DNA of 31,793 nucleotides, from the NCBI GenBank assembly GCA_000447185.1, contig KE647200.1, positions 1-31,793 on the forward strand, in the 5' to 3' direction. Source of the stretch: Vairimorpha apis BRL 01 (Eukaryota; Microsporidia; Nosematidae). Within the stretch, counting starts at the first letter, position 1, and the number at the start of each line of letters is the position of its first letter. This document shows, piece by piece, positions 362 through 20,716 of this stretch. A program made the position numbers and the translations under genes. Below the pieces are notes generated by a model, which was not told the DNA's origin, ran no database searches, and saw nothing but the letters and a program-made list of their open reading frames with translations.

Positions 362-795
362 TGTTTATGTGGGTGGCCGTAACAAAAATGTTGATCTAAT
401 ATTGAGCAAATATATGGTTTTTCAGATAATGTTTTATTATCTTTAGATACTTGTCGTCCAATGTTTAAGTTACTTGGAATCTTTATTATTCCTTACTTTA
501 CCTAATTTAAAATTTTTTACTTATTAAAATTATTTCTAGAAAAAACTACAAAACAATAAAAACTAAATTGTGATAGAATATCACAGTGGAACATACCCAT
601 TTTTAAGTATATTTCTAAAATGGTCTTGTTATTAAGTTTAATTTTTGTTAAAAAATTTATTCATTTCATTTTTTTCAATCCCCTCTTTTCATAAAATTTC
701 ATTTATATTAACATTTTCTAAAATCAATTAATCAAAATTAAAATTGTAATGAAAGGTCTTAAAAATAATGCATTCAAAATCTCGAATTTAGTGCA
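362..795 (-). mobile_element. Solo LTR E, split by LTR A0
   Basis: On the minus strand the sequence near the LTR end encodes CSILDQHFCYGHPHKQ, which matches the LTR-encoded motif of LTR F (SSILEQHFRTATSNEDMP). Upstream of it the nucleotide stretch TTTTCTAGAAATAATTT is shared almost exactly with LTR F. The plus-strand left end is TG at 362-363. The minus-strand head is probably the imperfect palindrome at about 770-795 (TGCA...TGCA). LTR A0 at 569-764 interrupts the element; without it, LTR E would be about 235 bp. The flanks TATGT (357-361) and TATAA (796-800) match at only 3 of 5 positions, so the outer limits are approximate and the element is old. Confidence 0.55.
569..764 (-). mobile_element. 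Solo LTR A0 (family A), inserted in LTR E
   Basis: The reverse complement aligns along its length with A1 and A3. It shares the tail ending in TGTGAT / ATCACA, the segment encoding NKTILEIYLKMGMFHC (compare NKSLIELYLKNGYVPHGHH in A1), a GAGGGG block (plus-strand CCCCTC at 680-685), a TATAAATG box (minus strand, 707-700), and the head TAAGACCTTTCAT, which matches TTATGACCTTTCAT. The terminal CA of the head is mutated. The 5-bp flanks TAAAT (564-568) and ATAAT (765-769) match at 3 of 5 positions, consistent with an older insertion than A1. Confidence 0.75.
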
Positions 796-2047
796 TATAA
801 ATTAATTTTAATTTTATATTTTCAATTTAGGTTCTTATAAATTTTTTTGATTTTAAATAAAAATCTAATTTATTTGTAAAAGTAATTTGTTTAAATATAA
901 ATCATTAATGTGTTAAAATTAATAAAACTATTTTTATTGAAAAATAATATGTTATACTATTTTCTTGCTATTGAAATTGCACAATAATTTAAATTTTTAC
1001 TATCTATGTAAGTATCAAATTGAAAATGTTAAATGATACATTTTAAATATTACTTTTATTTATAAATTAGATTTATATAATTTAAACAGATTTTTATATT
1101 TATATTCATATTGTATAAAAATATATATTGGATTTTGTTTAATTATCTCTTTATTAAAAAAACTTTTAGTTTTATTCTTTTTCATATTTAAAAGATCAAA
1201 TTTTTAAATGCTAAAAATATACTTTTATTGTATAAATAAAAATTCAAAACTTTTTTAATTATAAATGTTTCATTTTGTGTAATTAGTACATATTAGTGAG
1301 AACAATTATATTTTTTATTTGTTTTATATAAAAAATCAATTTTATAATGACTTAACAATTTTAAATTAAATATTAATATTTAATCATATTTATAAAATAT
1401 CTTAAAAATTATAATAATAATTTATTCAGTGACAATTTTATTTCAATTGAAGTGCTTTGATATGTAACACAATAAATTTATTACTTTTTAAGCAATGAAA
1501 AATTATTAAAACTTTTGATAAATATACGTGCTTTAAAAAGAATTATAATAAATAAGAGTTATAATTTATTAAATAAAGTTGATGACAAAAAATTATACAA
1601 TTTTTTTGTCCATTTTAGAGTAAAATAAATTAAAAATATTTAATTATAATATATAATAGATTTTTATTCAAATGAAAATTTATTATATTGTCAAATAAAT
1701 AAAATTTTATGTTCAAATTAATTTTTTGAATAACAATTAGAAAAATATATTCAAAAGTTACAGGATAAACACTTTATCAATAGTGCTCTTCAAAATATAT
1801 ACGATATTATATATAATCTAAACAAAATTTTAATAATAATAAAAAAATAAAAGTCAATATTTGTGATATTAAATATTTTGCTTATAATAATTGTCAGTAG
1901 ATGAACCTATTCTTATAATACGGATTCCTAAATCTACTAACTGAATAAGTTATTATTCTGTTTTATTAATTATTCTAGACTTCCATATTTTAATCTATTT
2001 GATATTTGAAAGGTCAGATTGTATCTAATTTATAATTGTTTTAGAAT
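796..2047. other. AT-rich spacer, nothing recognised
   Basis: About 1.25 kb of low-complexity A/T sequence. I found no reading frame with protein-like composition, no LTR head or tail, and no LINE similarity. Confidence 0.6.
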
Positions 2048-3030
2048 ATGTTATTTATGTTCATTTTACATTTTAACAAAATTCAAAATCGGTCAAATCA
2101 CGGTAAGTTGTATAAAGCTAAGACCAATGAACTAATAAGCATTAAGGATTCCTCTACATGGCTAACAAAGGGAAACAATCAGGCCAGATCCGAAGCAATA
2201 TATTGCTTCCTACAGGATAGAAATATCTTCTGTGGTCAAGTAGGACAATGTCCTCACTGTGGATCTCAAAGAAAGACAGTTGATCATTTAGCTACCAAGT
2301 GTGACCGAATGTTAGGTTTTGACTACATGAGAAGGCACAATGAGGTAGTTAGATGTATACATCTTCTTCTTTGTAAAAAGTATGGATTTAAAAAGACGAA
2401 TAAAATAAGAAGCCACTCAGTTCAAGAGGTTATGTCTAATGACAATGCCGAGAAACGAGTGGATACAAGGGTATCAACTGATATCAAAGTCTGCCATAAT
2501 AAGCCTGACATACTTGTAATAGACAAAAAGAATAAAGAAATCTTAATTGTCGAGATTGGAATAACCAATCAAGACCGTTTGACTATTGTCGAAAACGAAA
2601 ATTAAGAAAGTATGATCTTTTGGCTAATGAACTTGGACAAATATATAAATCTCGGACAAAGATTGTTCCATATGTAATAACATGGGATGGGGTGGTAACC
2701 AAGTACCACAGAAAGTATATCAAAGAGCTAGAAATCCAACCAAATCTTGAAGCGTACATGCAATCCATTGTACTTAAGAAGACTTTAGAGTCCATTTCTA
2801 TGGATAGAAGACGAGGATATGAGTGGATTGAACCTAGAGAGGACGAGGTGGAAAAAGCAGTGGAGAATTTAGTAAAAACTATACCTTTAAAAAATATATA
2901 TATCGAGGAGGCGAAACTCAAAATAAACGAATCAAAAAAGCCCCGAGATAATCAAAGTGAAGAATATGAAGATGAAATTGTTTTAAATAATCCACAAATT
3001 GAGAATACTAATAATAATGAACAACTATAA
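2048..3030 (+). pseudogene. 3' end of an RLE-type (R4/Dong-like) LINE: zinc knuckle plus restriction-like endonuclease, frameshifted
   Basis: Two overlapping frames make one C-terminal LINE domain. Frame 1 (2,048-2,605, 185 residues) has a knuckle C68-x2-C71-x8-H80-x4-C85, then RHN at 96-98, KPD at 152-154 and LIVEIG at 166-171, the layout of the restriction-like endonuclease in R2/R4/Dong LINEs. Frame 2 (about 2,602-3,030) continues it as KLRKYDLLANELGQ; one indel near 2,600 separates the two. The remaining tail (through residues such as EKAVENLVKTIPLKN and EEAKLKI) is conserved in the minus-strand copies at 13.1-13.6 kb and 27.2 kb. Nothing upstream of about 2,060 matches the longer copy's reverse transcriptase, so this is a 5'-truncated insertion, usual for target-primed reverse transcription. 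The first few residues are probably flanking sequence. Confidence 0.9.
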
Positions 3031-3894
3031 AATAATAACCCAATAAACCTTTTAACTAATATTTTTAATAGTAAAAAATTTATTATAATTTTGTTATTTA
3101 TATATGTTTTAAAAAAAATATAAACATAATATATCAACAGAATTTAAATTTTATAAACTTTAAATTAATATTATTAAATTCCTGCGTATTATTTAAATTA
3201 GATATTTAAACGTTAAATTTTGGAGATTTTAATACATATGTAATATGTTTTTAAAGAATTATTAACATGTTTTTATATGAAAAATAAATAATTTTCTTTA
3301 TTATAACAATATTTATAAGTATTTTTAATTTATTTTAATAATTTGAATATAATTTTTAATAATTAGCTTTATTTTATATATGTTGTTAATTATATGTTTT
3401 TTATTTTACAATGTACTAATCATTTATATATAATGTTATCATAGTAAATGTTTAAAAAAATAAGACAATTAAACAGCTTCGAAAATAATAAAACTAAACT
3501 TTTTAATCTTAATATTAAATTGTCTATAAACTTATTTTTTTGATTTTTATGATAATAAATAGAAATTTGCAAGATACACCTCAATTTTTTACAATATAAT
3601 TTTTTTATTTTAAAAATCTTACATTCCAAACTTATTTTTTTTAAAAAAAATAGGCCATTTAAATATCGTATTTTTAAATTATTACAAATTCTTTAAAACG
3701 TAAAACTATAAAAAATACATACATTATATTCAAATTACTCAATTTTGAAATATCTTATGCCTATAATAAATTATTTCAATTTTTAATTTTTTTGTCTTTT
3801 TATTAAAAATTAATTTATATAAACAAAATCTTATTTTTTAATTGACATATTTAATTAAATGTTTTAGACACAAAATAAAAATAAGGGATATATT
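3031..3894. other. AT-rich spacer, nothing recognised
   Basis: Follows the LINE stop codon. The first part may be LINE 3' untranslated sequence, but I could not match it to the 3' flanks of the other copies. No protein-like frame is seen. Confidence 0.5.
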
Positions 3895-4139
3895 TGACAT
3901 GTTTTAACGAAAGCGACCATATTTATTATAACTTTAAATAATTTTTAATTTTTGTTCTTTTTCTTTTATTCCGTTAGTCTTTTCCTCTTATTGATACATG
4001 TTGGCCTTCTTCTAAGAACATTCTCTTTTTTATTTTTTTTGGTTTTAGAACTTTTTAAAGTAAAAAATAAATTAACGATTAAATTATCTGATAAATTAGT
4101 CAAAAAAATAAATTTATTTGACATGTGGATTATACCACA
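3895..4139 (-). mobile_element. Solo LTR H with perfect target-site duplication
   Basis: On the minus strand it begins with the palindromic head TGTGGTATAATCCACA and ends in TGTCA. The 5-bp flanks are identical: ATATT at 3,890-3,894 and at 4,140-4,144. Near its 3' end a decayed frame reads KII*SYNKYGRFR*NMS, which fits the LTR motif family with the Glu codon turned into a stop (GAA to TAA is the simplest change). The same frame upstream reads EEKTNGIKEKEQKLKII, again protein-like. No clear TATA box remains. A plus-strand open frame across this interval (3,952-4,182) has the composition of a T-run and is not a gene. Confidence 0.85.
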
Positions 4140-4250
4140 ATATTTTTGTGGTAAAGTTTTACCACATTATCATTTTATTTGATATTCATAATTATCATAA
4201 ATCAGCTATCATTTTATTGGTGCATTATGTTTCATATTTGAAACATAAAC

Positions 4251-4258
4251 TATAAAAG
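4251..4258 (+). promoter_or_regulatory. TATA box of LTR C
   Basis: TATAAAAG lies 33 bp before the ATG at 4,292, in the place where every better-preserved LTR here has a TATA-like element. Confidence 0.55.
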
Positions 4259-4291
4259 AAAAATACATTTAATAAATATAGCAAGCAGGCC

Positions 4292-4408
4292 ATGAGATCG
4301 TATATTAAAAATAATAAAAGCTCTTTAAATACTAAACCATGTGTTCGGGGTAAGTTCATAATAGAGAACTATTTACGTTCCGGACTTATGCCCCCAAGTT
4401 TCACCACA
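4292..4408 (+). CDS. LTR-encoded N-terminus of a gag-like protein (LTR C)
   Basis: A 39-codon frame without a stop, from ATG 4,292 to the last base of the LTR (codons ACC ACA). It ends with KFIIENYLRSGLMPPSFTT, the motif seen in the other LTRs (compare SILEEFFSSGRLPAVNTT in LTR B2). In a complete element the frame would continue into the internal region; here it stops soon after the LTR because the insertion is solo. Gag identity is inferred from position only; the motif matches no family I can name. Confidence 0.55.
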
Positions 4409-4687
4409 ATTTTTAAATATAGTTTGATGTAGATTTTTCTTTGACATCAAAGTATAAAATTTAGTTTTAAAATATAATTAAATTGTGTTTTCTCTTTAAA
4501 GTATGAACTTAAAACGGTATTTAAATTAGATGTTAATTTTGTAAAACATTTGATAAATCTCTATAAAAACTATAGTAAATAATTTAATTAATTAGTAAAA
4601 GAAAAGACATTTTAAATTTATATTAAAATAAGAATTACTTTAAATAATAATCTTAATATATAAAATAATATTTTTATCCTTAATATT

Positions 4688-4978
4688 ATGAACAATAAAA
4701 AAACATATTCTTTATTAGTAAACGACGAAAATTGTATAAATAGTGAACAAAAACAAGAAAATATTTTTAATAAAAAAGAAGAAATCCTACATAACAAATT
4801 TAATGACATTAAAAGATCCGTAAGTGATTATTGTAAATATTTTGAAATCAAGTATGTTAATTATATTCTTTGCCTTTTAGGAGTTTTGTTTTGTTTAGTA
4901 GCTACATTATTAATACTCCATGTATATTATAACTATCCGAAAGAATTTCTAAAAATAGAATTTAAAACGTTAGTTTAG
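4688..4978 (+). CDS. Small single-pass membrane protein, unidentified
   Basis: A 96-residue frame starts at ATG 4,688 and ends at TAG 4,976-4,978. Residues 1-55 are hydrophilic and rich in Lys, Glu, Asn and Asp, including an Asn/Lys/Glu-rich stretch (NSEQKQENIFNKKEE at 18-32). Residues 57-79 form one clear transmembrane helix (NYILCLLGVLFCLVATLLIL), followed by about 16 residues ending KIEFKTLV. The architecture is that of a tail-anchored or type II protein with a cytosolic head. The length is only moderately above chance in such DNA, but the coherent composition favours a real gene. It is not related to the transposons around it. The nearest neighbours are LTR C (280 bp upstream) and a 2.3-kb empty spacer downstream. 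No promoter signal is obvious, and I do not recognise a family. Confidence 0.5.
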   Translation: MNNKKTYSLLVNDENCINSEQKQENIFNKKEEILHNKFNDIKRSVSDYCKYFEIKYVNYILCLLGVLFCLVATLLILHVYYNYPKEFLKIEFKTLV

Positions 4979-7308
4979 TTATGAAATAAAAGTATCTGTT
5001 TTTATAACTTTTTACTAACTTTTTTTTATTTTAGTGTTTTATTTATGTATAAAGAAATATTTTATAAATCTAAATAATGTAAGTATTTTTAGATAAAATA
5101 AAATTAATGTTTTATTAGATTAAGTTTTTATAATACTGTTCTTTATATTTCTAGTATTTCTATTTAAATAAAAATAAATTTAACTAAAATTAAAGATTAT
5201 AATTGTATACACAAATATCAAAATTCAAAACATCTATTTATTTTAAAATATTAATTATAATTTCCTATTAAATTACATGAATGCTATATTAACTAAAAAA
5301 TATATCTATATAAAACAAACACGCTTTATATTTAGAAAGTAATTTTTTTTATTAATATTACTATGGTGTAATTAAAATATTATTTTCGATATCTATATTG
5401 ATATTGGAAATGTAAAAATGCTATAAGTTTTACATATTAAAAATTTAAATTTTAAAATTCTGTGTTTTTAACTTGTGGTTACATTGTCACACATTATTTA
5501 TAACAAAAATATAAAAAGAAGTTTTGGATAAGAAATCTAAAATTATAAACATTAAGTTAATATAATTCTAAGATGTTAAATTATATTGTATATACCATTA
5601 TATTATAAAATAATATGATATATATAGTTAAATGTAAAAAAATTAATTAATATACTATATATAACGATTTTTTTATAAGTAAAATTTTTATTTTGTATTC
5701 ATAATCATTTTTTATTAATACAGATTTAAAAATATTTGAATTTATATTTCTGTTAAAATAAAAAAACTTTTTTAAAGCTAAACAAATCATTTAAAACAAC
5801 ATATGGTTATTAAATATTAAAAGTCATTTAAAATTAAGAGCAAAATATAATCATATTAAGTAACTACAGTAAAAACATTAAAAAAAATTTGCTTTATTTT
5901 TATATAATAGTTAAGCTATCTTTTGTTTAGTTTTAATTTTTTTTAATTATATACCAAACTTGCTATTTTAATTTTAAAATTTTTAAAGCATCTAGAAATT
6001 TATATTAAATATATAACGGATATTTAACAATGATATATAATTTTTATTTTTATTTTCACTAAATAAGTTTTTTAAATCTTTATATATCATAAAAATAAAA
6101 ATTCATGTTAATGTTATAATAATAATATTTGAATTTAAATACAACAAGTATATTTTATAATTACATTTAGAAAGTTTAAACAATTTTCAAATATCTTTTA
6201 AAACTACGTTCTTAAGTGTATAAACAAAAACAGTTTGTTCGATATAAAATTTAACTTATAAATATCTCATATTTATATTCTATATTTTTATCATTTATAA
6301 AATATAGCATTTCAATAAAATTTTTCGCAAATTTTATTTTATCATAATATGTATTTTGCAAATGAATATTATAATTTTTTTAAGAATAAAAAATTATAAT
6401 AAAATTAGATAAGCTCTTTAAACTTAGGTACATCAGTTGGATCAAAAATCAGAAAATATTGTTTATACTTTTATATAATCTAAATAGTTAGTTAAATATT
6501 ATAAATAATATAGTTGTATCTATGAATTAATATAAATCAAATAATAGCTTAAATAAATCATTATTTAGTTCAAATTTTTTTAAAATGTTAAAATAATTAT
6601 ATTTAATTCAATACTTAAAAAATGATTTTTATTATGGTTTTTTTTTAAATATGAAAGAAAATATAATAGTTTTAATGTATTAAAATGATCCTTTAAAATA
6701 AAAAACGTTAACTTTATAAATGATCTCTATAAATACTTTTCTATTTTCTTTGAAAAATTTTAAACTAAAATTTAAAAAAAATATATATGCTTGAAAATTA
6801 AAATTTTTAATAAAAGTTTATGAAATTATCTTCAAATTTTAATAATCTTAAGAATTTTATGATCTGCTTTAAAAAAACAAATAGATATTTATAATCTTTA
6901 TTAAAATTGAAACATAAATTATAAATTTTAATTAATAAATATTTAATAATTTAGTTTAAGAAAAATTTTGAGAATTTTCTTTTAATATTAAATATTCATA
7001 TATTGCCATTATTATATACTAAATTATAATCGACTTAAAAAATAGATAATATTTTATATAAAATTTATTTTTAATTTTTAATATTTTAGTCTTAAACATC
7101 TAAACCTTAACACAAATATCATAAAACATAGAAAATGAGTTTACATAGTATTCTAATTTTTAATATTAAAGTTCCTTTCACTTTCTTTTTGTAAAAAAAA
7201 TTATGAATATGATTAATTATAAAATTATAAGTAGTTTTCAATACGTGTAACTTTATTATCAAATAAAAAATAAAAACAATTCAAAACATGATATAACATT
7301 AGGTAAAT
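4979..7308. other. AT-rich spacer, nothing certain
   Basis: About 2.3 kb with no coding-like frame. A possible LTR-like head at about 5,474 (TGTGGTTACATTGTCACACA, with TATAAAAAG near 5,511) has no motif frame and no matching end, so it is not called. Confidence 0.5.
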
Positions 7309-7539
7309 TGTTATGACCTTTCATAACAGTTATGAATATTGATTAAAAATTCTAGAAAATTTAAAGTATAAATAAAAATTAGAAAAAAGAGGGGTACGAC
7401 GACGACGACGACGAATGAATAACATGAACAACAGAATTAACAAAAACATCAATAGACAATTTAACATAAAAAAAAACTTTTAATAAAAGCCTTATCGAGC
7501 TTTATCTAAAAAATGGGTATGTCCCACATGGACATCACA
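7309..7539 (+). mobile_element. Solo LTR A1 (family A) with perfect target-site duplication
   Basis: It starts TGTTATGA-N4-TCATAACA (a near-perfect palindrome) and ends GACATCACA. Both flanks are TAAAT (7,304-7,308 and 7,540-7,544). TATAAATA lies at 7,367-7,374, then AGAGGGGT, then six tandem ACG triplets (7,396-7,413), then ATG at 7,415. The frame from that ATG reads MNNMNNRINKNINRQFN and meets a stop after 22 codons. One base away in frame, the sequence continues as NKSLIELYLKNGYVPHGHH to the LTR end, so a one-base loss in an A-run is the simplest explanation. Family A also includes A0, A2 and A3. Confidence 0.97.
7367..7374 (+). promoter_or_regulatory. TATA box of LTR A1
   Basis: TATAAATA, conserved in position in A2 (minus strand, 14,544-14,551) and A3 (20,525-20,532). 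Confidence 0.6.
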
Positions 7540-8644
7540 TAAATATATGTGTTTAAACTTATTTATTTAAAAGCTTATAACCAAATATTAATAACTTTTA
7601 TATTTATTAATTAACATTGAAATGTACTTTATATATATTAATAACTGATGAAAGATTTTACAAAGTATGGTGTTATTATATTGTTACTAATAAATATAAT
7701 TATGATATGACCTTTGTTAAAAATTAATTATTTGTATTTTTTGATTGTTACGTTGTTAGCTAACACTATTATGTTCAGTCTTTATAAAACGACATAGTTT
7801 TTAAGAATTTTTTTTAAAAAAAATTATATTATTACTATATATATACAATTGTATAATTATAAATATCATCCAGCAAAGTAAAGATATATATATTTCACTA
7901 ATGGTAGATGTCAATAATACAGATATTAGGTTGTATTTACTGATCAAAACAATACATATATATTTATTTTTATAAAAGTCTTCAAGTTTATTAAATTATT
8001 GATATCGAATTGTTTTAAATTAAATTAAAAATTTTTAAAAACAATACACAATAAGAATCTTTTTAATCAGCAAACCTAATTTTTAAAAAATAATTAAAAC
8101 TTTTATGTTTTGTTTTATATCATATTAAATGAGCATGGATAAAATAAGTAACAATTTAGAAGATAGAGTTATTTATATAATTATCAAAAAATATGTAAAA
8201 TTTAGTAATATTTGTTTTAATAAAAATAGAATTTATTTTATATAGTTTTTTTTAGATATTAAATAAAACTAAAATTAATAATTGTTCGATTTTTATATTT
8301 TTATGAATAATTATATTAAAAAGATTGTTTAAATAAAAGGAAACTTCCTACAAAATAATACACTTTTGTCTATTTAAATAGCATTAAATTAAAAACTTTT
8401 TATAGAGATAATTGTTTGATACATAAAATTAAAGTCGTAATATATAATATGTTGTTATATCTAAAAAAAATATTTTAAATGCATATAAAAAAATTTATTT
8501 TTTAAACACATAAAAATGTAAGATAATTTGAGGATTTCATATTACAATAAAAAGTTTAGTAATTATAAAAAAAGAAAAATTTTAGATTTTATTTATGGTT
8601 TATTGTTACAATATGATCATTTTTATATCTTTACTTTATAAAAC
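7540..8644. other. AT-rich spacer, nothing recognised
   Basis: About 1.1 kb between LTRs A1 and B1. They lie in opposite orientation and belong to different families, so they are not the two ends of one element, and the interval shows no gag or pol similarity. Confidence 0.6.
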
Positions 8645-8842
8645 TGTAGTATTAACCGCAGGTAGGCGTCCTGAAGAGAAAAACTCTCCCAGCATGCTAT
8701 CTCCTGAACATATAGATTTTTGTTTAAAATTAAATAGTTTATAATTATTGTTGTTGTATGGTTTTTTTGTATGTCGTTGCACGCTGAGATAGATTGCTGC
8801 TAATGACATGCTTCTGTGTTTATTATAGTCGCTCGTAGTCAT
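8645..8842 (-). CDS. LTR-encoded N-terminus of a gag-like protein (LTR B1)
   Basis: From ATG 8,842 the frame is open for exactly 66 codons to the LTR boundary (ACT ACA). It has a basic, Asn-rich start (MTTSDYNKHR), a polar Asn stretch, and ends SMLGEFFSSGRLPAVNTT. The B2 copy has the same start, the same poly-Asn region with a length change, the same ending and the same phase at the LTR edge. Beyond the LTR it runs into flanking DNA for three residues before stopping. The plus-strand frame opposite it is also partly open in B2 but lacks a conserved start, so minus is the coding strand. Confidence 0.6.
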
Positions 8843-8884
8843 GTATGTAAATATATATATATGTATGGGTTAACTAAAAATAAA

Positions 8885-8892
8885 TATTTATA
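8885..8892 (-). promoter_or_regulatory. TATA box of LTR B1
   Basis: TATAAATA on the minus strand, 43 bp before ATG 8,842; B2 has the same box at 15,813-15,806. Confidence 0.5.
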
Positions 8893-8957
8893 CTTTTTGA
8901 CTGCAATTTTATTTTTGTAGGGAATTTTTAATTAAATCATGTGGTAATTATACCACA

Positions 8958-10242: not shown

Positions 10243-10342
10243 TGTCGTAACCCCTACGTCTACGTCCTGTGGCCAAATAATACTCTACATAGTTTTTAAT
10301 AAAAATTCTTTTATTATTTTCGAAAAATCTCCTATTCATCAT
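10243..10342 (-). CDS. LTR-encoded N-terminus of a gag-like protein (LTR D)
   Basis: ATGATG at 10,342 opens a 33-codon frame that reaches the LTR boundary with one base left over. It reads MMNRRFFENNKR and ends IKNYVEYYLATGRRRRGYD, fitting the shared LTR motif (hydrophobic pair, Glu, aromatic pair, Gly, basic tail). The leftover base gives a different phase from LTRs B, C and F but the same phase as the motif frame of A1. Confidence 0.5.
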
Positions 10343-10382
10343 AAAATGTCGCTACATGATATCCCCCCTGTCATAAATTTTG

Positions 10383-10390
10383 TTTATATA
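10383..10390 (-). promoter_or_regulatory. TATA box of LTR D
   Basis: TATATAAA on the minus strand, 41 bp before the ATG and followed by a G-run, as in LTR A1 (AGAGGGG). Confidence 0.5.
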
Positions 10391-10464
10391 ATTTTTGGAG
10401 GGAAAATAAATTAAACATTTTGAAATAAATAAATGTTAAGAAATGTGGTACACGGGATACCGCA

Positions 10465-13088
10465 TAAACATAAACAAAATAATAGATTGATTAAAAATTA
10501 AATTTAAATTTGTATAAACAATAATTTTTAAAATAAAAAGACCTGATATTATTAAATTAACTTTGATATTAAAATTATAGATTTAAAATGTATTTAAAAT
10601 TTATTTGCAAAAAATATAAATTTGTTAAAATTAGTTATTTACTATTGTTTTTATGTTTTATATTAATTTATTTAATACATTTATTCTATTTTTTCTATTT
10701 AAAATTTTTCAAATAGATACTAAAAAAAGATCAAAAAGTGTTTTATTTCTTTTTACCAGAAAGCAATAAAATTGCAAAATATGCAAATTTTAATTATAAT
10801 GAATATATATTATAATGTCATTTACACATTTTATTTTAAACAAAAACATATGCATTTTTATCTTAAATGTTTTTATAAAACTTTTTTAAAAAATATAATA
10901 TTATATGTGAATTTAAACCTATCTTAATCGATCAAAGTCTTTAACAATCATTTAAAATTAATTTAAATTAGATACTATTCTATAATATATCAAAGCTATT
11001 TTAATGTTTTAAACATACTTGCAAGTAAAATTTATATTAAAGTAATAAAAATTTGTCTATAATATTATATATTTTTTTCTTTTTAAATTACAAATTATAA
11101 TCAATTTTTTTTATTCTTGATAATTTCTTATATTTTTTATATAATAGTTCATTACTTTACCCAGAAACTTTTTTTATTGTTTTTAATACTTTATTTAAAA
11201 CTTAAAAATAAATTATTTTTTTCTAATGATTATCATTTTTTTTAATTAGTCTAATTAATCATAAACATGTTATTACTTTGTAACACTTAGTACTATTTTT
11301 TGTAAATTATTTTATTTAATAACATTTTTCTTAAAATATATGTAAAAGTTAAGAAATATAATAATTTTTTTCACAATTTTATTTTTTTGCAGAATTATCG
11401 ATTATTTTTATAGTATTTTATTTCTAAACGTAAATAAATAACTTTAAAAGAGAAGACTTAAAACTAAAACTTCATATTAGCAATAAAACCATATTTTATT
11501 AAAAAAGTATCAACCAATTAATATCAGAGTTTATATCTAGTCTCTGGAAAAAGTTTTTTAATATTAAAAATTTTATTTTTAATTTATTAAATTTATTATT
11601 GCAAAACTTTTTACATATATTACATACTTTTTAAATAAATTTTATTATTTGTTCTTTATATTTTAGACTAAATAAATATTCAAATAGATACTTATAAAAT
11701 GCTTTATGTTTTTTTTATTACATATATTATTATCAAATAAGTTTAAAACTTTATATATTATGGCGGATTGTTTACGTATTTAATTATAATATTTTAATCA
11801 TTACAATATAACTTAATTTTTGATATATTATAAAAAATTAAAATATTTATTAACTATTTATATTACTGTAAAATTCACACGGATGATAATTTTAATTGTA
11901 TTACTATTTTTAAAAAAATATATAAACAAATGTTAAACATTATATTTTTCAAGTTATAACCTCTATTAGTATACGTATATGTTATATAAATGATTTATAA
12001 ATTACAAATTTATTGTACAGTTAATATTCATTTTTACATATTTTTTTACAAAAGCTTAAAAATGACACATATTTTTCATTGTTTATATTGTTATGCATTA
12101 TGTAATATTTAAATTATTAGACATTTTTTTTAATCGACTTTTGTTATAATCTCAAAAAACTATGTAATAATAAATTTTATTAATTGTTTCAATTTTGTTC
12201 CTCTGCTTTTTAATCGTTGATATTCTTTATTCGGTTGTAATTAATTCTACAAAATAAATGATTTTTTTATGTAATTTTATTACCAATTTTATTTTCTAAT
12301 AATTATAAAATTTGATTATAAAGCAAACTGATTATGAAAACTATATACGTTTATACCACTTTGATTCTTTTGTTTTTTTATATATTAAAAAATATTAAAG
12401 ATGTAGATAAAATGTAAATATAAAAACATGTTTTGAAAAATTAGTTTTATATTTACAAAAATAATAATTTTTTATGATTAATTATATAATAAGTATTTAA
12501 AGTAATTAAAAAACTTTCCTAAAGTTTTTTTATTAGATAGTAAATAGTTTTAACATTGTAATTTAATATATATATGTGTGTTGTTTTATAAATATTAATA
12601 TAGTAAATTTATATAATTAATAACAAATTAAATGTAATAATTATATTTTTTGATTAAACCTTGAAAAAAATATTATTTTTAATTTGCTTTCAATAAAAAA
12701 TTTAAATCTATATAATTAAAAAAGCAAATTTTATAAATACTACACCATAGAAATTTTTAGTAAAGTAAGTACTAAACATGATGTTTGAATTAAACTACCA
12801 TAAACAACTAAGCAAAGTATTTAATTATTTTATAAATTATTACTTGCAATATGTTAAAATCAAGTTTTGGAAATTAATATCTAAATATATAATAAAAAAT
12901 ACTTTAAAAATCATTAACTATATTTTTTTAATGAGTATCAAAAAAATTTAATTATACTACATAAGTTTATACATTAAAAACATTTTTAATATGTAAATAC
13001 AATTTCTATAAAAATAAAAAGGAATGTTAAGTTATTGTTATTTATCGTATGGACTTAATATTTTAAACTATCTTTGAAGTTTTTTTTT
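10465..13088. other. AT-rich spacer, nothing recognised
   Basis: About 2.6 kb, among the most AT-rich parts of the window. Stops are frequent in all frames; no LTR ends, LINE similarity or gene signals were found. Confidence 0.6.
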
Positions 13089-13679
13089 GATTATTTGATT
13101 TTGAGTTTTGTCTCTTCAATAATGATACTTTTATAAGGTATTTTATTAAATAATATCTCCACAGCTTTTTTACCTATTTCATTAAAGGTTCATTACACTC
13201 ACATTTTCATAGTCGTTTAATAGAAATAAACACTAAAGTTTTTTTGAGCACAATAAATTGTATCAAAGCTTCAGATTATATTAAAGTTTTAAATTTTTGG
13301 CATATTTTTATAGTACTTGGTATCATTTCATCTTATATAAATACATATAAAATAATTTTTGTCCATAATTTATAAATTTGTCCAAGTTCTTTAGCTAAAA
13401 GATCATAGTTTCTTAATTTTCGTTTTTGGCAGTATTAAAAATATCTTGATTGGTGATTCCAATTTCTAAGATTAAGATTTCTTTACTTTTCTTCTATATA
13501 ACAAGGAAATGTGACTTATTATGACAGACTTAAATATCAGTTGATTTCCATGTATCCACTCGTATCTCGGCAATGTATGACATTAAACATGACATCTTGA
13601 ACTGAGTAAGTTATTACTTTTTACAAGTTTTAGATCAATATTTTTTTATAAAGAAACAGATATATATCTAAACTATCTA
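13089..13679 (-). pseudogene. LINE 3' end (endonuclease and C-terminal tail), interrupted at 13,680
   Basis: Reading the minus strand, the remains follow the C-terminal half of the LINE at 2,048-3,030: SVQDVM, then GQIYKLWTKIILYV (compare GQIYKSRTKIVPYV), ALIQFIVLKKTLVFIS (compare AYMQSIVLKKTLESIS), VKKAVEILFNKIPYKS and IIIEETKLKI. There are several stops and frameshifts. DNA similarity extends up to about 13,675, in the region equivalent to RHNEVVRCIHLLLCKK, then stops abruptly where the LTR element at 13,680 begins. It is probably the same LINE insertion as the fragment at 17,037-18,690, with the middle lost. Confidence 0.88.
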
Positions 13680-13723
13680 TGATAAATAACTACCGCATTT
13701 GTTTAATTTAAATAATAAACAGG

Positions 13724-13731
13724 TATAAATA
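13724..13731 (+). promoter_or_regulatory. TATA box of element I's own 5' LTR
   Basis: TATAAATA. With LTR F removed, it would lie about 45 bp before the ATG at 14,094, the spacing seen in the other LTRs. This supports F being an insertion into this LTR. Confidence 0.45.
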
Positions 13732-13750
13732 CAGAATGAACCCTTAAGGT

Positions 13751-14067
13751 TGTGGTATCTTACCACATTTTTTTATTTTTTAGAAAAAATATAATTTTTC
13801 TAGAAATAATTTACTATAGATAAAAATTCCAAAAAGAAGGACACACGTACGCGCGGATGAGAGACGAAACGGAACGAAATAAAACGACACGACACGAAAC
13901 GCATGAGAGACAGGAAGTTAGAGTTAAACAGACCTATTAATAGTTATAATAACAAAAGGGAGTTACACCCATTACCAAAAGTAAATAAAACATTTAAATC
14001 TAAAATTGTTGTTAGCTCTATATTAGAGCAACACTTTCGTACGGCTACCTCAAACGAGGATATGCCA
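13751..14067 (+). mobile_element. Solo LTR F, inserted in the 5' LTR of element I
   Basis: It starts with the palindrome TGTGGTATCTTACCACA and ends GGATATGCCA. The flanks are AAGGT (13,746-13,750) and AAGGG (14,068-14,072), matching 4 of 5. It shares TTTTTCTAGAAATAATTT and the following AT-rich block with LTR E, and resembles A3 in the same region. A weak TATA-like TATAGATA is at 13,815-13,822. The leader before the ATG at 13,903 is an unusual run of ACGA-type repeats containing CG-rich words (ACGTACGCGCGG). Confidence 0.8.
13903..14067 (+). CDS. LTR-encoded N-terminus of a gag-like protein (LTR F)
   Basis: ATG 13,903 opens exactly 55 codons up to the proposed LTR boundary (the frame itself runs on to TAA 14,089-14,091 in flanking DNA). 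Basic and polar, it ends SSILEQHFRTATSNEDMP, the closest relative of CSILDQHFCYGHPHKQ in LTR E. The phase at the boundary is zero, as in LTRs B and C, which independently supports placing the LTR end at 14,067. No domain is recognised. Confidence 0.5.
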
Positions 14068-14093
14068 AAGGGATATTCAGATTATTATTAAAT

Positions 14094-14419
14094 ATGCATA
14101 CAGACAGAACAGTGACGGACTATAAAATACCATTAAATAAAAGTATATTAGAAAAATACTTTAAGAAAGGGAGTATTTCCAGGGATTACCTTAGGTTAAA
14201 TTCAACGATGAAATTTGAAAAAATTAGAAATAATCATTATGCAGAGAATGATTACATTGAACGACAAAAACAAATTCCAGGTATAGGTATTTCCTTAAAA
14301 GAAAAAAAATATAATAATAGATATTATCTCAGATGTCACACAAAGCATTTAAATCAATTTAAAAATCCAATGACTGACAAATGAACGGATGAGCAAATGG
14401 CGCTTATCTATTATGGTAT
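14094..14419 (+). pseudogene. Gag-like N-terminal region of element I
   Basis: From ATG 14,094 the frame is open to TGA 14,382-14,384 (96 residues) and then, past that stop, to the LTR A2 insertion. Residues 15-34 carry the LTR-type motif NKSILEKYFKKGSISRDYLR. Residues 35-96 are basic and polar (KFEKIRNNHYAEND, QKQIPGIGISLKEKK, RYYLRCHTKHLNQFK). The stop sits where Trp (TGG) would give WTDEQMALIYYG, which superficially resembles the start of a Myb/SANT helix; that is a weak guess. The frame resumes after A2 at 14,612, and LTR plus duplication is 192 bp, so phase is kept. Assignment to gag rests on position. Confidence 0.6.
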
Positions 14420-14606
14420 TGTAATGTCTATGTGGGATACAATCTTTATTTTTAACCCTGATTAAGCTTTTGTTAATAGTTTCGTTTTCTCAGTAATTGT
14501 TGTTATTCATCTTCTCGATCGTCGTACCCTTCTTCTAATCATTTATTTATACTTTAAAATTTCTAGAATTTTCAAATAATAACAATAAACGTTATAAGGT
14601 CAAACA
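14420..14606 (-). mobile_element. Solo LTR A2 (family A), inserted in element I
   Basis: Reverse-complement similarity to A1 and A3 runs through the whole unit: head TGTTTGACCTTATAAC, TATAAATA (minus strand, 14,551-14,544), AGAAGGGTACGACGATCGAG, ATG at 14,510 with MNNNNY, then NKSLIRVKNKDCIPHRHY and the end GACATTACA. It is 187 bp, shorter than A1 through internal deletions. The flanks GGTAT (14,415-14,419) and AATAT (14,607-14,611) match 3 of 5; both differences are G-to-A changes. Removing the LTR and one flank restores an uninterrupted frame across the site. Confidence 0.9.
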
Positions 14607-14611
14607 AATAT

Positions 14612-15550
14612 AATTATGCATTTAAGAAAAGAGGAATTGCCTGAAGATTCTTGTGGTAAATTGAGAACAAATTTATTAAACATATTGTATCCTATCGAAC
14701 ATAAGATAAAAATTATAAGCGAGCTAGATACACCAGACAAATTAAGTATACATTTATTAACGAATATAAAGAAGCGATTTAGAAAAGAGTATTAGAATAT
14801 ACACATGTTTGTAAATTAAAAAGGGATAAAGCTTAAAAAAATTTAAGAAGTCTTTATTGAAGATATAAAAGACTTTAAGTACCTTATATAAACAAAATTA
14901 ATTTAATAAACAATAAAATTGATTATATTTATAATTATCTATTCAAATTAGAGTGTAAATTAATTTCAAAGGGATCAAAACAAAAAAATTTACAACATTC
15001 CATAATATTGCATCTCTTAAAAATCGGGACAAAAAAGAAATAATGTAGTGCTTAAAAATCGATAATTGTTACAAGTTAAGAAACTATCATATTTTAAAAG
15101 ATAAAACAAAAAAAGTCAATTTAATAAAGCATATAACAATAATTTTACAATTCAAGAAGCTTGTCAGGAAATTAAAGATGTAGATTTGTAAAGCAAAATA
15201 TGAGATGAAATAATCAAATTATTAATCGATAATGAATATAAGATGAACTATATCAATATCGATGAACTAAAGAATTTGAGTTTTTGAACTGAGGAATGTA
15301 AACTCACTAGAACAGTATGTGGGAAAGGCGATATTACAAAATGTAAACATCTAGTAAACAAAAAATTAATACTGAAAGAATTACATTATAAAATTCTTTT
15401 TTACGTGTTACAAGAAAATTCTATTAAATATCCTTTGGAAATATTTTTTATAATAAAAACAATGTACTATTAGATTATGGAAATAGATGTTTGAGGATAA
15501 AAATGAAATAATTTGTTTAAAGATAAAGAGATTGAAATGGATGAGGTATT
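14612..15550 (+). pseudogene. Continuation of element I coding region, heavily broken
   Basis: The frame entering from before LTR A2 continues from 14,612 with MHLRKEELPEDSCGKL and KIISELDTPDKLSIHL to TAG 14,793-14,795. Several frameshifts follow. A second open stretch, 15,207-15,473, is interrupted only by one TGA at 15,285-15,287 and reads EIIKLLIDNEYKMNYINIDE before it and LTRTVCGKGDITKCKHLV after it. The end of the segment, KDKEIEMDEV, runs into LTR B2. The product is unrecognised; by position it would be the rest of gag or the start of pol. Lys/Glu-rich coding composition on the plus strand is clear despite the decay. Confidence 0.5.
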
Positions 15551-15757
15551 TGTGGTATTAACCGCAGGTAGGCGTCCTGAAGAGAAGAACTCTTCTAGGA
15601 TACTACCACTAGAACATATAGATTGTTGTTTATCATTAAATAGTTTATTATTGTTGTTGTTGTTGTTGCATGGTTTATTGTTCGTCTTTGCACGCTGATA
15701 TCTGTTGCTGCTCAGTGACGTATCTCTGTGTTTGTTATAGTCGTTCTTAGTCATCAT
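15551..15757 (-). CDS. LTR-encoded N-terminus of a gag-like protein (LTR B2)
   Basis: ATGATG at 15,757 opens exactly 69 codons to the LTR boundary. The frame starts MMTKNDYNKHRDTS, contains a run of seven Asn codons (AAC/AAT, longer than in B1), and ends SILEEFFSSGRLPAVNTT. Start, ending and phase all agree with B1 despite many substitutions, so the frame was probably under selection when the family was active. No known domain. Confidence 0.6.
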
Positions 15758-15805
15758 TATATGTTATTAATGGATATATATATATATAGGTTAAACAAAA
15801 ATAAA

Positions 15806-15813
15806 TATTTATA
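15806..15813 (-). promoter_or_regulatory. TATA box of LTR B2
   Basis: TATAAATA on the minus strand, at the same place as in B1. Confidence 0.5.
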
Positions 15814-15869
15814 TTTATTTTTGGCGGGAAGATTAAATTAAATCATGTGGATATTATACCACAGTATTA

Positions 15870-17030
15870 AATGATATATCGATGAAAAACACGAGTGATT
15901 AGGAGAATGATCAGAAACATACAGAAGAGGTAAATATAATAGATAAAAAAGAGGATAAAAGAAACATTAAAAGTTGACTGTGGTAACATATATAATAAAG
16001 CTATAAAATATAATGTAATTGAAAACAGAATTACAAATCACACAAACGTCAAAAAAGGTGATACTTTAAGAATTAAAAATGAAAATTATTAGATGAACCA
16101 TAAATCATTTATCAAACTTTGGTATATAAACATCATAATAAGCTTAAAAATAAGCATTATAAAAGTCAAACCGCACTAAAAAAACGAAAACATTAACAAC
16201 AATAGAATAGGGATGATTTATTACATTAAAACAAAGAAAATAAATAATAAAAAATAAAATAAAATTACTTGTTAAAAGTTTTAAGACAAAAACAAAAGAC
16301 AATCTTAAATTTTGACAAAATTGCAAAAAGTGTTTATCAACTACCGCCTGTGAAAAAAATTTTATAGTTAAATTATTAGAGAAGCATTTAAAAAATAGTG
16401 TAAAGTGGTAGAAATACCTGACAGTATTTTCGGCTTAAAGAAATTTTTTAGTAAATAAACAAGACTATTTCATTCGTTTTGAGTATTGATAAAGAGTAAA
16501 AAATCCAAGATATTGTATTGCAAATCAAAAAGCTATTAATATAAATTATAATGGGACTTTAAGCATCTACCTTGTCAATAATCAGAAAATATAATATATA
16601 CGATGTATTTAAGACAAAAGTCATTTTAAAACCAACTTAAATAAAATTAATTAAATTATGTTAAGGTAAGCGATTATTGGAGAAAAAAATTTACGGAACA
16701 AAAAAGCTTGAACAAAATATATTAGACATAAAAGAGTAGAAAAGATAAGTCTAAAAGAATTCTGGGTAGTTTTGCAGAGAAACAGTGCATAAACACAAAT
16801 AAAGCATGTGAAATAATCCACATTTGCAATAATTAAAATTTCTAATAAATTTTATGTATTCAAACAAGATTAACTCCTAAGATACAAAGAGATAGATACA
16901 ACGATAGATGGAAATTAAAAAGAATGCGACAATTAAAAAAATAAAATAATAATTATAATTTAACAGGTCTTAAGGAACCTAAGTGAAAAAATATCTTAGA
17001 ACGATATATAGGTACAGGACTATCCTTTTT
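15870..17030 (+). pseudogene. Pol relic of element I: possible protease and reverse-transcriptase fingers
   Basis: Coding-like plus-strand sequence in shifting frames. At 15,961-15,987 a frame reads ETLKVDCGN, followed by IYNKAIKYNVIENRITNHTN and VKKGDTLRIKNENY: a D-x-G signature and spacing that would fit an aspartic retropepsin with the middle Thr/Ser replaced by Cys. Further on, broken frames give VYQLPPVKK, VKLLEKHLKNSVKW, FLVNKQDYFIRFEY and NPRYCIANQKAININYNGTL, which resemble the fingers region of Ty3-type reverse transcriptase (basic helix, then F-x-x-NK-x-x-x-x-R). The last part (about 16,620-17,030, with RDRYNDRWKLKRMRQLKK) is unassigned. All assignments are by eye on decayed sequence. 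Confidence 0.4.
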
Positions 17031-17036
17031 AAACAA

Positions 17037-18690
17037 GTAATTTTTTCATAGCCTTTTCTTTAACTTATAAAGTTACAACTGTGCTCATCAATTTTTCAGC
17101 TAGTATCCTGTTCTCTATAATATTTACTGCACAATCTTAATTGTTCGATTTGTTTTGATTATTAAAGATTAAATAAAACGTATAGACTATAATTGTTAAT
17201 TTGTGTTGACACATTTTTAAATTTAGATATGTCAAGTCTTTATAAAACCTAGGTTTTAGGTTTATTCTCTTAAAAAAAATCTACTCCATAACTTTTTAAA
17301 AGAAACAATAGATAATTATAGATTTCTTATAAAGAAGTTATAATGCAAATGCATTCAGTAACTTTTCAATATCTTAAGATTTTTTAAAATAGCTACGAAT
17401 TCTGCATATTTAGGAAAAGTTATTGTTCATCTATATTATGATACACTATATAAAATAAGCATCAAAAGTTTTTTTTGTAACAATATTCTCTATTCTGTTA
17501 AATATATACGATTAAAATTTTAATATATTTATCTTATTTACATTATGAAAAAATTTTGAGCTCCTTCAAATTTCCTATAGAAATTACATCTATAGAGCTC
17601 AAAGCTTTAGTTTTTGACTCTACATTCTCTAATTCGTAAGAACCTCATATTAATCAAATATACAGCAACTCTTGTGCTAAGATAGCTATAGGTTTAGAAG
17701 TATCATGAAGTAAACATGCAACATGTTAACCTCTCTCATATACTTCTTAGAATCACGTTTTTCATCAGTTGAGAGTTTACCAGTGGATCAAACCTTCTTT
17801 AAAAGAGTTATCTTAATTTCAAGTAAATAATCTTGAATTTTAATCCTTTCTGTTAATTTACACGATTTCACGTCTTTTATGGTATTCTTTTGATTATAAT
17901 TCACTCAGTTTAGTGTTCACACTATTTCGGATACTTAATGAGGTTGATGATTATTGAGATAGTCTTTTAAAGATTTTATACTTAGTAAATCTATACCAAA
18001 TCAACTTTAAACAATAATTTTTTTCTAGTTATGGGAATAAACCTTTTTTTAAAATTAAAAAATTAAATTTCTTCTGAATAAATTTTAGAAAATTTTAGGT
18101 ATTTAATCAAATTTAACACTAAAATGGATATATAGATAAAAGAAATCTATAAATGAAGTAACAAAACATACCATGGTAATATGAATAAGAATATTATTTA
18201 TGATGAAACCGGTTATCAAGAGCCAAGATTTAAAAGTATTTTATAATATATTTCAGGGATAATACGAAATTGAAAAAATATGTCAAGTTATTTTCATTTT
18301 TTCACACCGTATTTTTTAAAATTGCAATCGAATCGTAAAAACTCTTTGTGTTGTTTAAAGATTTAATAATTAAAAAATCTTCACTCATTTTTCACTGTTT
18401 AATTTTTCTCCTTTTATTATTGTTCAATTCATAATCTTGGGCCGAGCATTATTTACCACAGTTACTAGTAAAAGTTTGTTTTATCTACTTATAAACATTT
18501 GGACTACAATTTCATCTAATAAACTCTTACAAAAACGTCTGTAGCTTGTTTTCTCTTATTCATGATATTCTGTCAAATATATTGTATACTTCTAAGTAAA
18601 CTTTTTGAGTCCATTCTTCTTCACATGTCTCGATACATGTAATAATCAAATCTAGAGTTGTAGAAAGTTATATATAATATCACAACATCT
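17037..18690 (-). pseudogene. N-terminal and early reverse-transcriptase part of a LINE, old
   Basis: On the minus strand this follows the first half of the LINE at 27,190-30,562. Nucleotides 17,560-17,745 align with 29,570-29,765 (shared CTATAGAG, AAATATACAGCAA and AAACATGCAA words). The lower end reads IIENRILAEKLMSTVVTL then VKEKAMKKLL, matching SENHINTVRQVKVVKEQAMI of the other copy just before the catalytic motif A. The upper end reads TCEEEWTQKVYLEVYNIF, comparable with ENSKRECSQRLKL. It stops at about 17,037, where element I sequence begins. Stops and indels are everywhere. Together with 13,089-13,679 it probably represents one LINE that lost about 1 kb. Confidence 0.75.
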
Positions 18691-20466
18691 TTCAGTCATT
18701 CATTCATTGTTTTGTTTATTTTAATTTAATTTGTTATTTTATATTAACGTATATTTAATGATAAATTAAAATACAAACATAAATAGAAATATCACCCATA
18801 GGGGATTAGCAAACATAAGAGAGCCTTAGATACGACTAATAATATAAATAAACCATTTAACATAGTGAAGATTAATAAAAATACAGCAAATTTCCAGTAG
18901 TACAGGACACAGAGGTGTAAAAAGAAAAATTATTGTCTTGTTTATTATCATCCTTTTTAGGTATTACAAATAATATTTTCTATTGTTGCCTCAACAGTTT
19001 TTAAAAGTTTACATTTTTAAACCTGTTTGCTCTAATTTTAACTCATTTACAATTTCGGTTAATGTATATATATGATGATTTAAATTTTAACCGAATAAAT
19101 TTTTTAAAAAACATTTTTTAAAATAATTATCTCTTACTTTAAATATGTAAAATAAATATAAACCACGCATGATATATTGTAAAGTATATTAAAATTTTAA
19201 TGTAACAGTATTGTAAAATTAACAAAATCAATTTAATATACACTGATATTGTATATACTAGGTCTATAAAAAGTAAAAAAACAATAATTTTAAACGTCAA
19301 TATATATTCTGTGATAAAAAAGATCACTGCATGTTTATTAAGTTTATTTTTTATAAACAAATTTTTATATTATATGATAAATTAAAAAAAAACATAAATA
19401 GTATTTGTTGTGGAAATAAAGATGGCATAAGAAGATACGAATAAAAAAAATATAACAATCGTTTAGTACAATTTAGAAAATAAATTTCTAGATTTACAGG
19501 GCACATTATTTTTTTTATTTAAATATAATGTTTTTTTATATATAGAAATAAAAATATCATCCATGAAATAATAAAAAGTTTGTCAGTAATGTGTTTTTAA
19601 TTAGATGATTATATTTAGATTTAACAAATATGAATAAATTCAAAAAAATTATTAATCATTAAACTATTGAGCAAAATAAGCAATTCAAATATCAAAATAT
19701 AAATCAAAACAATAACAATTTTTTTATTTAAATTGTATTTGATTAGTCAAAAATCGAAGTGTATTTTAATTAATAATTTTTCAAAAAATTTAACTATTTT
19801 TCAATTATATGACTTAAAAAAATATAAAAATATATCAATATAAATTTAGAACAAAAAAACAGTTAAAATTACATATAATTGTAGTATAATTTTATTTATA
19901 ATCAATTTTCTATTAAGAAAAGTTATCAAATCACGATTTGTAATTTTATTTCAAGCTTTTAAATAACACAATATAAAATAATCAGGATACATTTAAAGGT
20001 AACAATTCCATAATAGATACAATTTTTTTTAATATTTTTAAAATTAATAAAGTAATAATTATATCATATAATTTATAAATTTAAACTATATTAAAATAAA
20101 ATTTTTATTGTGTCTGTATAAAACAGGTATTCTGATATTAAAAAATGAAAAAGATTTTTTATTTCTAAAATAAGCAAACATTATATTTGATGAGTAAAAA
20201 TAAACATATTATTAATTGTATTTCGATATCAAAATAAGTTTATATCGTTATAAATATCTAAAAAAACAAATTAATAGTTCAAAATCTGAATTTATTACAA
20301 TAATTATCTTTATATGATAATGTCGTATCTTTTATGTAGGGAATCGAACATAAAATACTTTTATAATATACTTTAAGTTTTATATTATCATTTATTGTAT
20401 TTTTCTTTTTAGAAGGGCTAGCTATAGTACATTCCGAGCACTTCTAGTTGTTATTGTAAAGGTTAT
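18691..20466. other. AT-rich spacer with one unassigned stretch
   Basis: Mostly low-complexity. Positions about 18,780-18,960 are less AT-rich and contain words such as CACCCATAGGGGATTAG and TACAGGACACAGAGG; no frame stays open long enough to identify. I see no RNA fold that I trust. Confidence 0.4.
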
Positions 20467-20716
20467 TGTTATGACCTTTTATAACATTTATGAATATTGA
20501 TTATAATTTCCAGAAATAATTTAATATAAATAAAAAATTATAATAGAAAGGAACAATCTCACAAATGAAAACACGAACGAACGACGATCGAAAAGATGAA
20601 TAACAACAATTACCGATTAAACAAAAAAATTAATAACAATTTTTTTAAACAAAATATTTAACAAAACATCATCAAGGTATATTTAAAAAAATGGTTATGT
20701 TCCACATGACACTACA
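20467..20716 (+). mobile_element. Solo LTR A3 (family A)
   Basis: The head is TGTTATGACCTTTTATAACA and the end GACACTACA. The flanks GTTAT (20,462-20,466) and TTTAT (20,717-20,721) match 4 of 5. TATAAATA is at 20,525-20,532. The leader holds ACACGAACGAACGACGATCG, then ATG at 20,596 with MNNNNYRLNKKINN. A second frame further on reads NKTSSRYI*KNGYVPHDTT to the LTR end, so the coding stretch is broken by a shift and stops. Diverged from A1 but colinear with it. Confidence 0.92.
20525..20532 (+). promoter_or_regulatory. TATA box of LTR A3
   Basis: TATAAATA, at the same position in the LTR as in A1. Confidence 0.55.

What the first reader, a model, noticed from the sequence alone, without database searches (positions are those of the whole stretch)
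362..20716. LTRs of different families all encode the same N-terminal motif up to their 3' edge
Seen directly: LTRs that differ strongly as DNA carry near their 3' end a frame with one peptide motif. Examples: NKSLIELYLKNGYVPHGHH (A1), NKTILEIYLKMGMFH (A0), KFIIENYLRSGLMPPSFTT (C), SILEEFFSSGRLPAVNTT (B2), SMLGEFFSSGRLPAVNTT (B1), IKNYVEYYLATGRRRRGYD (D), SSILEQHFRTATSNEDMP (F), CSILDQHFCYGHPHKQ (E), and a decayed form in H. In C, B1, B2 and F the frame runs from an ATG to the LTR boundary in exactly 39, 66, 69 and 55 codons. Element I's internal frame starts with NKSILEKYFKKG. Inference: the gag-like protein starts inside the LTR, as in yeast Ty1, and this short motif has been kept while the rest diverged. 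I know of no description of this motif.
Basis: partly seen in the sequence, partly recalled or inferred. Interest (0 to 1): 0.87.

Follow-up and report, generated by a model that had tools for sequence, protein, structure and literature searches.

The report
Transposon capsid gene starts inside repeat
In a honey-bee parasite's genome, several families of retrovirus-like jumping genes begin their capsid protein inside the end repeat with one shared short motif, and where a copying primer would normally bind they carry a short palindrome whose role is unknown.

Summary
The window lies in the microsporidian Nosema (Vairimorpha) apis. LTR edges fixed by target-site duplications show frames with one motif, roughly K-S-[IL]-[LI]-E-x-[YF]-[FL]-x-x-G, near the LTR 3' edge. 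In 12 of 22 genome matches and in one F-family locus the frame crosses the LTR edge into Gag. Window LTR C is 98.9% identical to the LTR of an element whose frame runs 831 codons from the LTR ATG. Across 8 Gag-joined families codon positions 1/2/3 agree 57/66/35%, so the protein is conserved; among copies within four families selection is not detectable. Following the junctions gave something not in the finding: at the place of the primer-binding site lies a perfect 12-14 nt palindrome in 11 of 14 junctions, with different, compensating arms in different families and no consistent tRNA complement. TATA to ATG is 27-45 nt, so these mRNAs probably have almost no leader and Gag must start in the LTR. 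Gag starting in the LTR is known from Ty1; a palindromic junction from fungal GalEa Copia elements. This is a new variant.

The parts
4147..4408 (+). Solo LTR, family C (262 bp)
   Evidence: TSD ATTTT x2, TG..CA; 98.9% identical to the LTR of element L051
4292..4408 (+). LTR-encoded Gag N-terminus of C, ATG to LTR edge, 39 codons; motif 4352-4408
   Evidence: in L051 the same frame runs on, 831 codons in all
7309..7539 (+). Solo LTR, family A copy A1; motif 7482-7538
   Evidence: TSD TAAAT x2; 84% identical to the LTR of element L046
8645..8957 (-). Solo LTR B1; frame 8842-8645 (66 codons), motif 8698-8645
   Evidence: TSD GTTTT x2
10243..10464 (-). Solo LTR D; motif 10300-10244
   Evidence: TSD GTTTA x2
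15551..15863 (-). Solo LTR B2 nested in element I; frame 15757-15551 (69 codons), motif 15604-15551
   Evidence: TSD AATAC x2; 31 other matches of its peptide in the genome, B1 and M-family LTRs included
13680..14193 (+). 5' LTR of element I, split by the F solo LTR
   Evidence: similarity to the L021 LTR at 13698-13747, TATA and ACCCTT; 3' edge placed by homology with L021/L031
13751..14067 (+). Solo LTR F nested in the LTR of I; motif 14014-14067 with a 1-nt loss inside it
   Evidence: TSD AAGGT/AAGGG; comparison with L115
14094..14384 (+). Element I frame: ATG in its LTR, motif 14136-14171, crosses the LTR edge (~14193) into gag
   Evidence: matches P0003 at 14139-14426
14195..14206 (+). 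Junction palindrome of element I, one pair broken
14343..16736 (+). Decayed gag-pol remains of element I with nested LTR insertions
   Evidence: tblastn of L021 pieces and P0002/P0003
374..585 (-). Solo LTR E nested in LTR A0; motif 408-374
   Evidence: TSD TCCAC/CCCAC
586..762 (-). 5' part of LTR A0 (family A), motif 630-586, continued beyond the E insertion
   Evidence: A_L046 LTR matches 679-762 and 586-609
20467..20716 (+). Solo LTR, family A copy A2, motif decayed
   Evidence: flanks GTTAT/TTTAT; 71% to the A LTR

Best explanation
These are LTRs of several families of Ty3/gypsy-type retrotransposons of Nosema apis whose Gag (or Gag-Pol) protein is translated from an ATG inside the 5' LTR. 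Shown from sequence: in Gag-joined elements the ATG lies 27-45 nt after a TATA box and about 33-55 codons before the LTR edge (66-69 in solo B LTRs); the LTR-encoded segment ends in one conserved motif; the frame goes on through the LTR/internal junction into Gag. At the junction, where a tRNA primer-binding site is expected, sits a 12-14 nt palindrome that differs between families but stays self-complementary. Inferred: microsporidian mRNAs have almost no 5' leader, so the start codon must precede the primer site and hence lie in the LTR, which makes part of the LTR protein-coding; the motif is a short helix or peptide upstream of the capsid domain (matrix position) used in particle assembly or targeting; the palindrome pairs two genomic RNAs and may take part in priming reverse transcription.
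Against: Within-family N/S is not significantly below expectation in any of four families. Most elements are decayed: open frames over the junction longer than 160 codons were seen only in L052, L051, L115 (273) and L031 (202); L030 has a stop inside the match; L044 and L050 have no in-frame ATG upstream. No RNA or protein data exist here; transcription starts are inferred. The structure model is poor (mean pLDDT 39.6), the motif lies in a part with pLDDT about 30, and Foldseek alone gave nothing at E <= 0.001. In 3 of 14 junctions the palindrome is broken at the same pair, A opposite C; for families I and R (L117) only such broken copies were seen. Element I has a 12-nt match to tRNA-Lys at its junction, which could mean a tRNA primer in that family. 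The role of the palindrome is untested.
Confidence: 0.85

Rival explanations
1. The palindrome is the genomic-RNA dimerisation signal only; priming uses a tRNA or another RNA at a site not recognised here.
For: Ty1 palindromes are proposed to mediate dimers (PMC4974528, passages); computed 14-mer homodimers -12.0 to -16.0 kcal/mol in 9 junctions.
Against: Its centre is 5 or 7 nt from the LTR edge in the seven families with a perfect copy, where minus-strand priming is expected; tRNA complements there (6-8 nt in 13 of 14 junctions) are within the range of control windows.
Confidence: 0.35
2. The primer is an internal tRNA fragment (as reported for FunCo1 with tRNA-Lys) and the palindromic look is a by-product.
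For: Element I: 12-nt complement to tRNA-Lys, above the control maximum of 10; G family: 8 nt to tRNA-Gln, a length that 59 of 316 control windows also reach. FunCo1 precedent (PMC5445492, section 10).
Against: No common tRNA; a tRNA complement would not force compensating changes in both arms. Three of 43 tRNA matches were not fetched and the tRNA set may be incomplete.
Confidence: 0.15
3. The LTR frame makes a separate short peptide, not the Gag N-terminus.
For: Many LTR copies keep an open frame: 24 of 32 matches of the B2 peptide have no stop inside the aligned stretch.
Against: The frame joins Gag in eight families without a stop at the junction, and the deposited protein starts at the LTR ATG.
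Confidence: 0.04
4. The peptide likeness reflects common ancestry of LTR DNA, a DNA constraint or the way copies were found, not protein selection.
For: Within-family N/S near 1.
Against: In 8 Gag-joined families position 2 agrees in 66% and position 3 in 35%; other frames share 21-24% of residues against 45%; the ten codons just upstream show no such pattern (35/33/44%); the motif recurs in P0004.
Confidence: 0.06
5. The junction palindrome is a by-product of coding Leu-Asn-Ser / Met-Asn-Ser-Leu at this place.
For: Five of seven perfect-palindrome families share the GAATTC core and an Asn-Ser pair there.
Against: K (Ile-Ser-Leu, GATATC) and N (Leu-Ser-Leu, AAGCTT) encode other residues yet are perfect palindromes; arm pairs 1, 3, 5 and 6 change on both sides.
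Confidence: 0.08

Closest known systems
Ty1 of Saccharomyces cerevisiae
   Same: Primer-binding site inside the GAG frame (PMC4974528, passage); Gag ATG inside the LTR (recalled).
   Different: Ty1 is Pseudoviridae (recalled) with a tRNAiMet primer and two overlapping ORFs; here the gene order is Ty3/gypsy, no consistent tRNA site was found, and the junction is palindromic.
Microsporidian Ty3/gypsy groups (Parisot et al. 2014, PMC4202319; passages and section 13 seen)
   Same: Ty3/gypsy type with one polyprotein instead of gag and pol ORFs; 25 TE families counted in N. apis.
   Different: In the parts I saw, the LTR start, the N-terminal motif and the palindrome are not mentioned; its figures and supplements were not seen.
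Fungal GalEa Copia elements with Conserved Hairpin Site (PMC5445492, passages and section 10 read)
   Same: No recognisable tRNA site; a short palindrome right after the 5' LTR that uses its last A; LTRs averaging 235 bp, 5-bp TSD, single ORF.
   Different: Copia not gypsy; 10-nt palindrome with a complementary second sequence 12-41 bp on; here 12-14 nt, no second copy above control, and it lies inside the coding frame.
Tf1 of Schizosaccharomyces pombe
   Same: LTR element with self-priming instead of a tRNA (as cited in PMC5445492).
   Different: Tf1 pairs the mRNA 5' end with the site; of 10 elements here only 2, of one subfamily, have a 10-nt complement in the LTR, at the TATA box.
Choanoflagellate (Salpingoeca rosetta) LTR elements (PMC6875170, passages)
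   Same: The methods mention codons that overlap LTR sequences, so coding sequence in LTRs is known outside yeast.
   Different: No N-terminal motif or palindrome in the passages seen.

Membership tests
Ty3/gypsy (Metaviridae) | Pol order PR-RT-RNase H-IN | tested here: met
   L021: aspartyl protease (below cut-off), then RVT_1 and RNase H, then rve
Ty3/gypsy (Metaviridae) | LTRs TG..CA with short target duplication | tested here: met
   5-bp TSDs
Ty3/gypsy (Metaviridae) | Place in an RT phylogeny | not tested
   no tree built
Ty1-like Gag start in the LTR | Gag ATG inside the LTR, frame through the primer-site place into Gag | tested here: met
Ty1/copia (Pseudoviridae) | IN before RT | tested here: not met
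   IN follows RT/RNase H in L021
tRNA-primed LTR elements | Primer-binding site complementary to a host tRNA | tested here: inconclusive
   40 of 43 tRNA matches used; exact complements 6-8 nt in 13 of 14 junctions, 5-10 in 316 control windows; one 12-nt match in element I
GalEa conserved hairpin site | Palindrome at the 5' LTR/internal junction | tested here: met
   11 of 14 junctions perfect over 12-14 nt
GalEa conserved hairpin site | Second complementary sequence 12-41 bp downstream | tested here: not met
   9 junctions, best complement 4-5 nt in the next 55 nt, control 2-9
Tf1-type self-priming | mRNA 5' end complementary to the primer site | tested here: inconclusive
   10 elements: longest complement in the LTR 4-7 nt in 8, 10 nt in 2 of one subfamily at the TATA box; no control run and no transcription start mapped

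The most novel reading that the evidence does not exclude
Nosema Ty3/gypsy elements have replaced the tRNA primer-binding site by a self-complementary site: two genomic RNAs pair through the palindrome, one of them cut there primes on the other, and because microsporidian mRNAs are nearly leaderless this priming/dimer site, with almost the whole R-U5 stretch, is written into the Gag reading frame.
Probability: 0.25. Interest if true: 0.85.

Novelty: new variant of a known kind. Interest (0 to 1): 0.62.

Why it matters
If right, a genome-wide host trait, near-leaderless mRNAs, explains the architecture of the resident retrotransposon families: the LTR becomes coding, and each such LTR carries a promoter and an ATG for a Gag fragment. 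It also adds an unrelated group to the fungal GalEa elements in which a palindrome stands where the primer-binding site should be, making the open question of how such elements prime reverse transcription testable by comparison. For annotation it means that microsporidian LTR boundaries and Gag starts should be called together.

Tried and rejected
Within-family dN/dS as proof of selection: B 14 copies, 45 changes, 16 synonymous against 12.7 expected (p 0.17); M 7 copies, 13 changes, 4 v 3.5; G 8 copies, 23 changes, 7 v 5.4; K 5 copies, 10 changes, 3 v 2.9: no significant result. The A family was listed but not tested.
Full report
What is there. The window is contig C123 of a 5.96 Mb genome. 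A Gag-like protein of the same genome is deposited as NAPIS_ORF00927 of Vairimorpha (Nosema) apis BRL 01, on a contig of the same length as C72. All nine peptides of the finding are present. Five LTRs have perfect 5-bp target duplications and three more match in four of five bases, so LTR edges are known independently of the reading frames. Corrections to the finding are in the observation check.

Does the frame join Gag? A protein search of the own genome with the L021 N-terminus gave 22 matches. In 12 of them the frame with the motif crosses the LTR edge into a Gag sequence (L029=L021, L030, L031, L032=L052, L034=window I, L042, L044, L046, L047=L024, L048=L051, L049, L050); in L044 and L050 no in-frame ATG precedes it. 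The other 10 (L033, L035-L041, L043, L045) are LTR-only matches, decayed, or were not resolved. An F-family locus, L115, adds one more. Best cases: L052, a 2.46 kb element with LTRs 99.2% identical and the duplication ATAAC, has one 553-codon frame from the LTR ATG. L051 has 831 codons from the LTR ATG, through a Gag-like region, aspartyl protease and integrase, with no reverse transcriptase found, up to a run of N; the 1012 codons listed include those N. Its LTR is 98.9% identical to window LTR C; its 3' LTR was not found in the stretch fetched. Window element I shows the crossing in the window itself (14094-14384). Most other elements are decayed.

Motif. Across 15 representatives of families and subfamilies the 12-codon core agrees at positions 1/2/3 in 57/64/35% and in 43% of residues. 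These were partly chosen by the motif, so I repeated it with the 8 families whose frame joins Gag: 57/66/35% and 45% of residues, against 9% for shuffled codons, 21% and 24% in the other two frames, and 35/33/44% and 9% in the ten codons upstream. Those 8 were still mostly found by homology to the L021 N-terminus. This is protein-level conservation between families. Among copies within families it is not visible. P0004, a protein labelled as from a Lactobacillaceae metagenome bin but encoding retroelement Gag-protease, has the same layout: CIIEDFLSSGRLP followed by a Gag. That it comes from another microsporidian is my inference. In its model, residues 167-262 align with retroelement capsid domains; the motif (a helix at 43-53, low confidence) lies about 60 residues before the first helix of the modelled bundle (111) and about 100 before its confident part (pLDDT 70 or more from about 161). 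So the LTR encodes a segment upstream of the capsid domain.

Leader. TATA to ATG is 27-45 nt in 9 of 9 elements (six families, counting G2 apart) with enough flank, and CCC stands within 80 nt before the ATG in 7 of 9. In Encephalitozoon cuniculi 5' leaders are under 7 nt with CCC just before the start (PMC2803860, passages) and N. apis genes often carry ACCCTT (PMC3726280, passages). I infer that the transcript begins just before the LTR ATG, so the start codon has to precede the primer site.

Junction palindrome. Looking at the DNA where the frame leaves the LTR, I found a perfect 12-14 nt palindrome in 11 of 14 junctions examined, centred 5 nt (C, M, K) or 7 nt (G, A, F, N) after the LTR edge: TTTGAATTCAAA (G), AATTGAATTCAATT (A), ATTTGAATTCAAAT (F), CAATGAATTCATTG (C), AATGAATTCATT (M), AATGATATCATT (K), TTTAAGCTTAAA (N). 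Edges come from LTR pairs (G, K), from duplications of window solo LTRs of the family (A, C, F) or from where solo copies stop matching (M, N). Of nine families with a junction, seven have a perfect copy and two (I and R=L117) only a copy broken at one pair; one G copy (L021) is broken too, and all three have A in place of G at the same pair. Arm pairs 1, 3, 5 and 6 change on both sides among the seven. At 3554 other centres in the same sequences 6 of 7 pairs occur 5 times, 7 of 7 never. Several junctions are of related families, so they are not independent, but the compensating changes are informative. Complements to 40 of the 43 tRNA matches are at control level except a 12-nt match in element I. 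No consistent Tf1-type or GalEa-type partner was found. Fungal GalEa elements have a palindrome at this place and no tRNA site (PMC5445492, section 10 read); I found no report for gypsy or microsporidian elements in the searches, most of whose papers I saw only as listings.

Mechanism. Shown from sequence: Gag start in the LTR, motif, frame through the junction, palindrome. Inferred: near-leaderless mRNA as the cause, matrix-like role for the motif, palindrome as dimer and possibly priming site.

Noticed in passing
534, 7350, 13798, 14561, 20770: TTCTAGAA, resembling a heat-shock element (nTTCnnGAAn, recalled), 16 nt before the TATA box in the G and A LTRs tested and TCTAGAA also in M and F; five copies in the window, four of them in LTRs, against about 1.3 expected from base composition. 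Not found in the K and C LTRs tested.
   Followed up: partly
2048-3030, 13329-13576, 27591-28052: Decayed C-terminal part of what looks like a non-LTR retrotransposon with a zinc-finger-like and an endonuclease-like stretch (by eye), with diverged inverted copies.
   Followed up: no
LTR 5' ends, e.g. 4147-4166, 7309-7328: The window LTRs start with a 17-21 nt inverted repeat (TGTGGTA..TACCACA and variants), perfect in some and imperfect in others; role unknown.
   Followed up: no
L052: A young 2.46 kb element (LTRs 99.2% identical) with one Gag-like frame and no recognisable polymerase, so presumably mobilised by others.
   Followed up: partly
14461-14606, 24044-24120: Further partial copies of the A-family LTR, one inserted antisense in element I.
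   Followed up: no
P0004: A protein from a metagenome bin labelled Lactobacillaceae that is a retrotransposon Gag-protease, probably eukaryotic contamination.
   Followed up: partly
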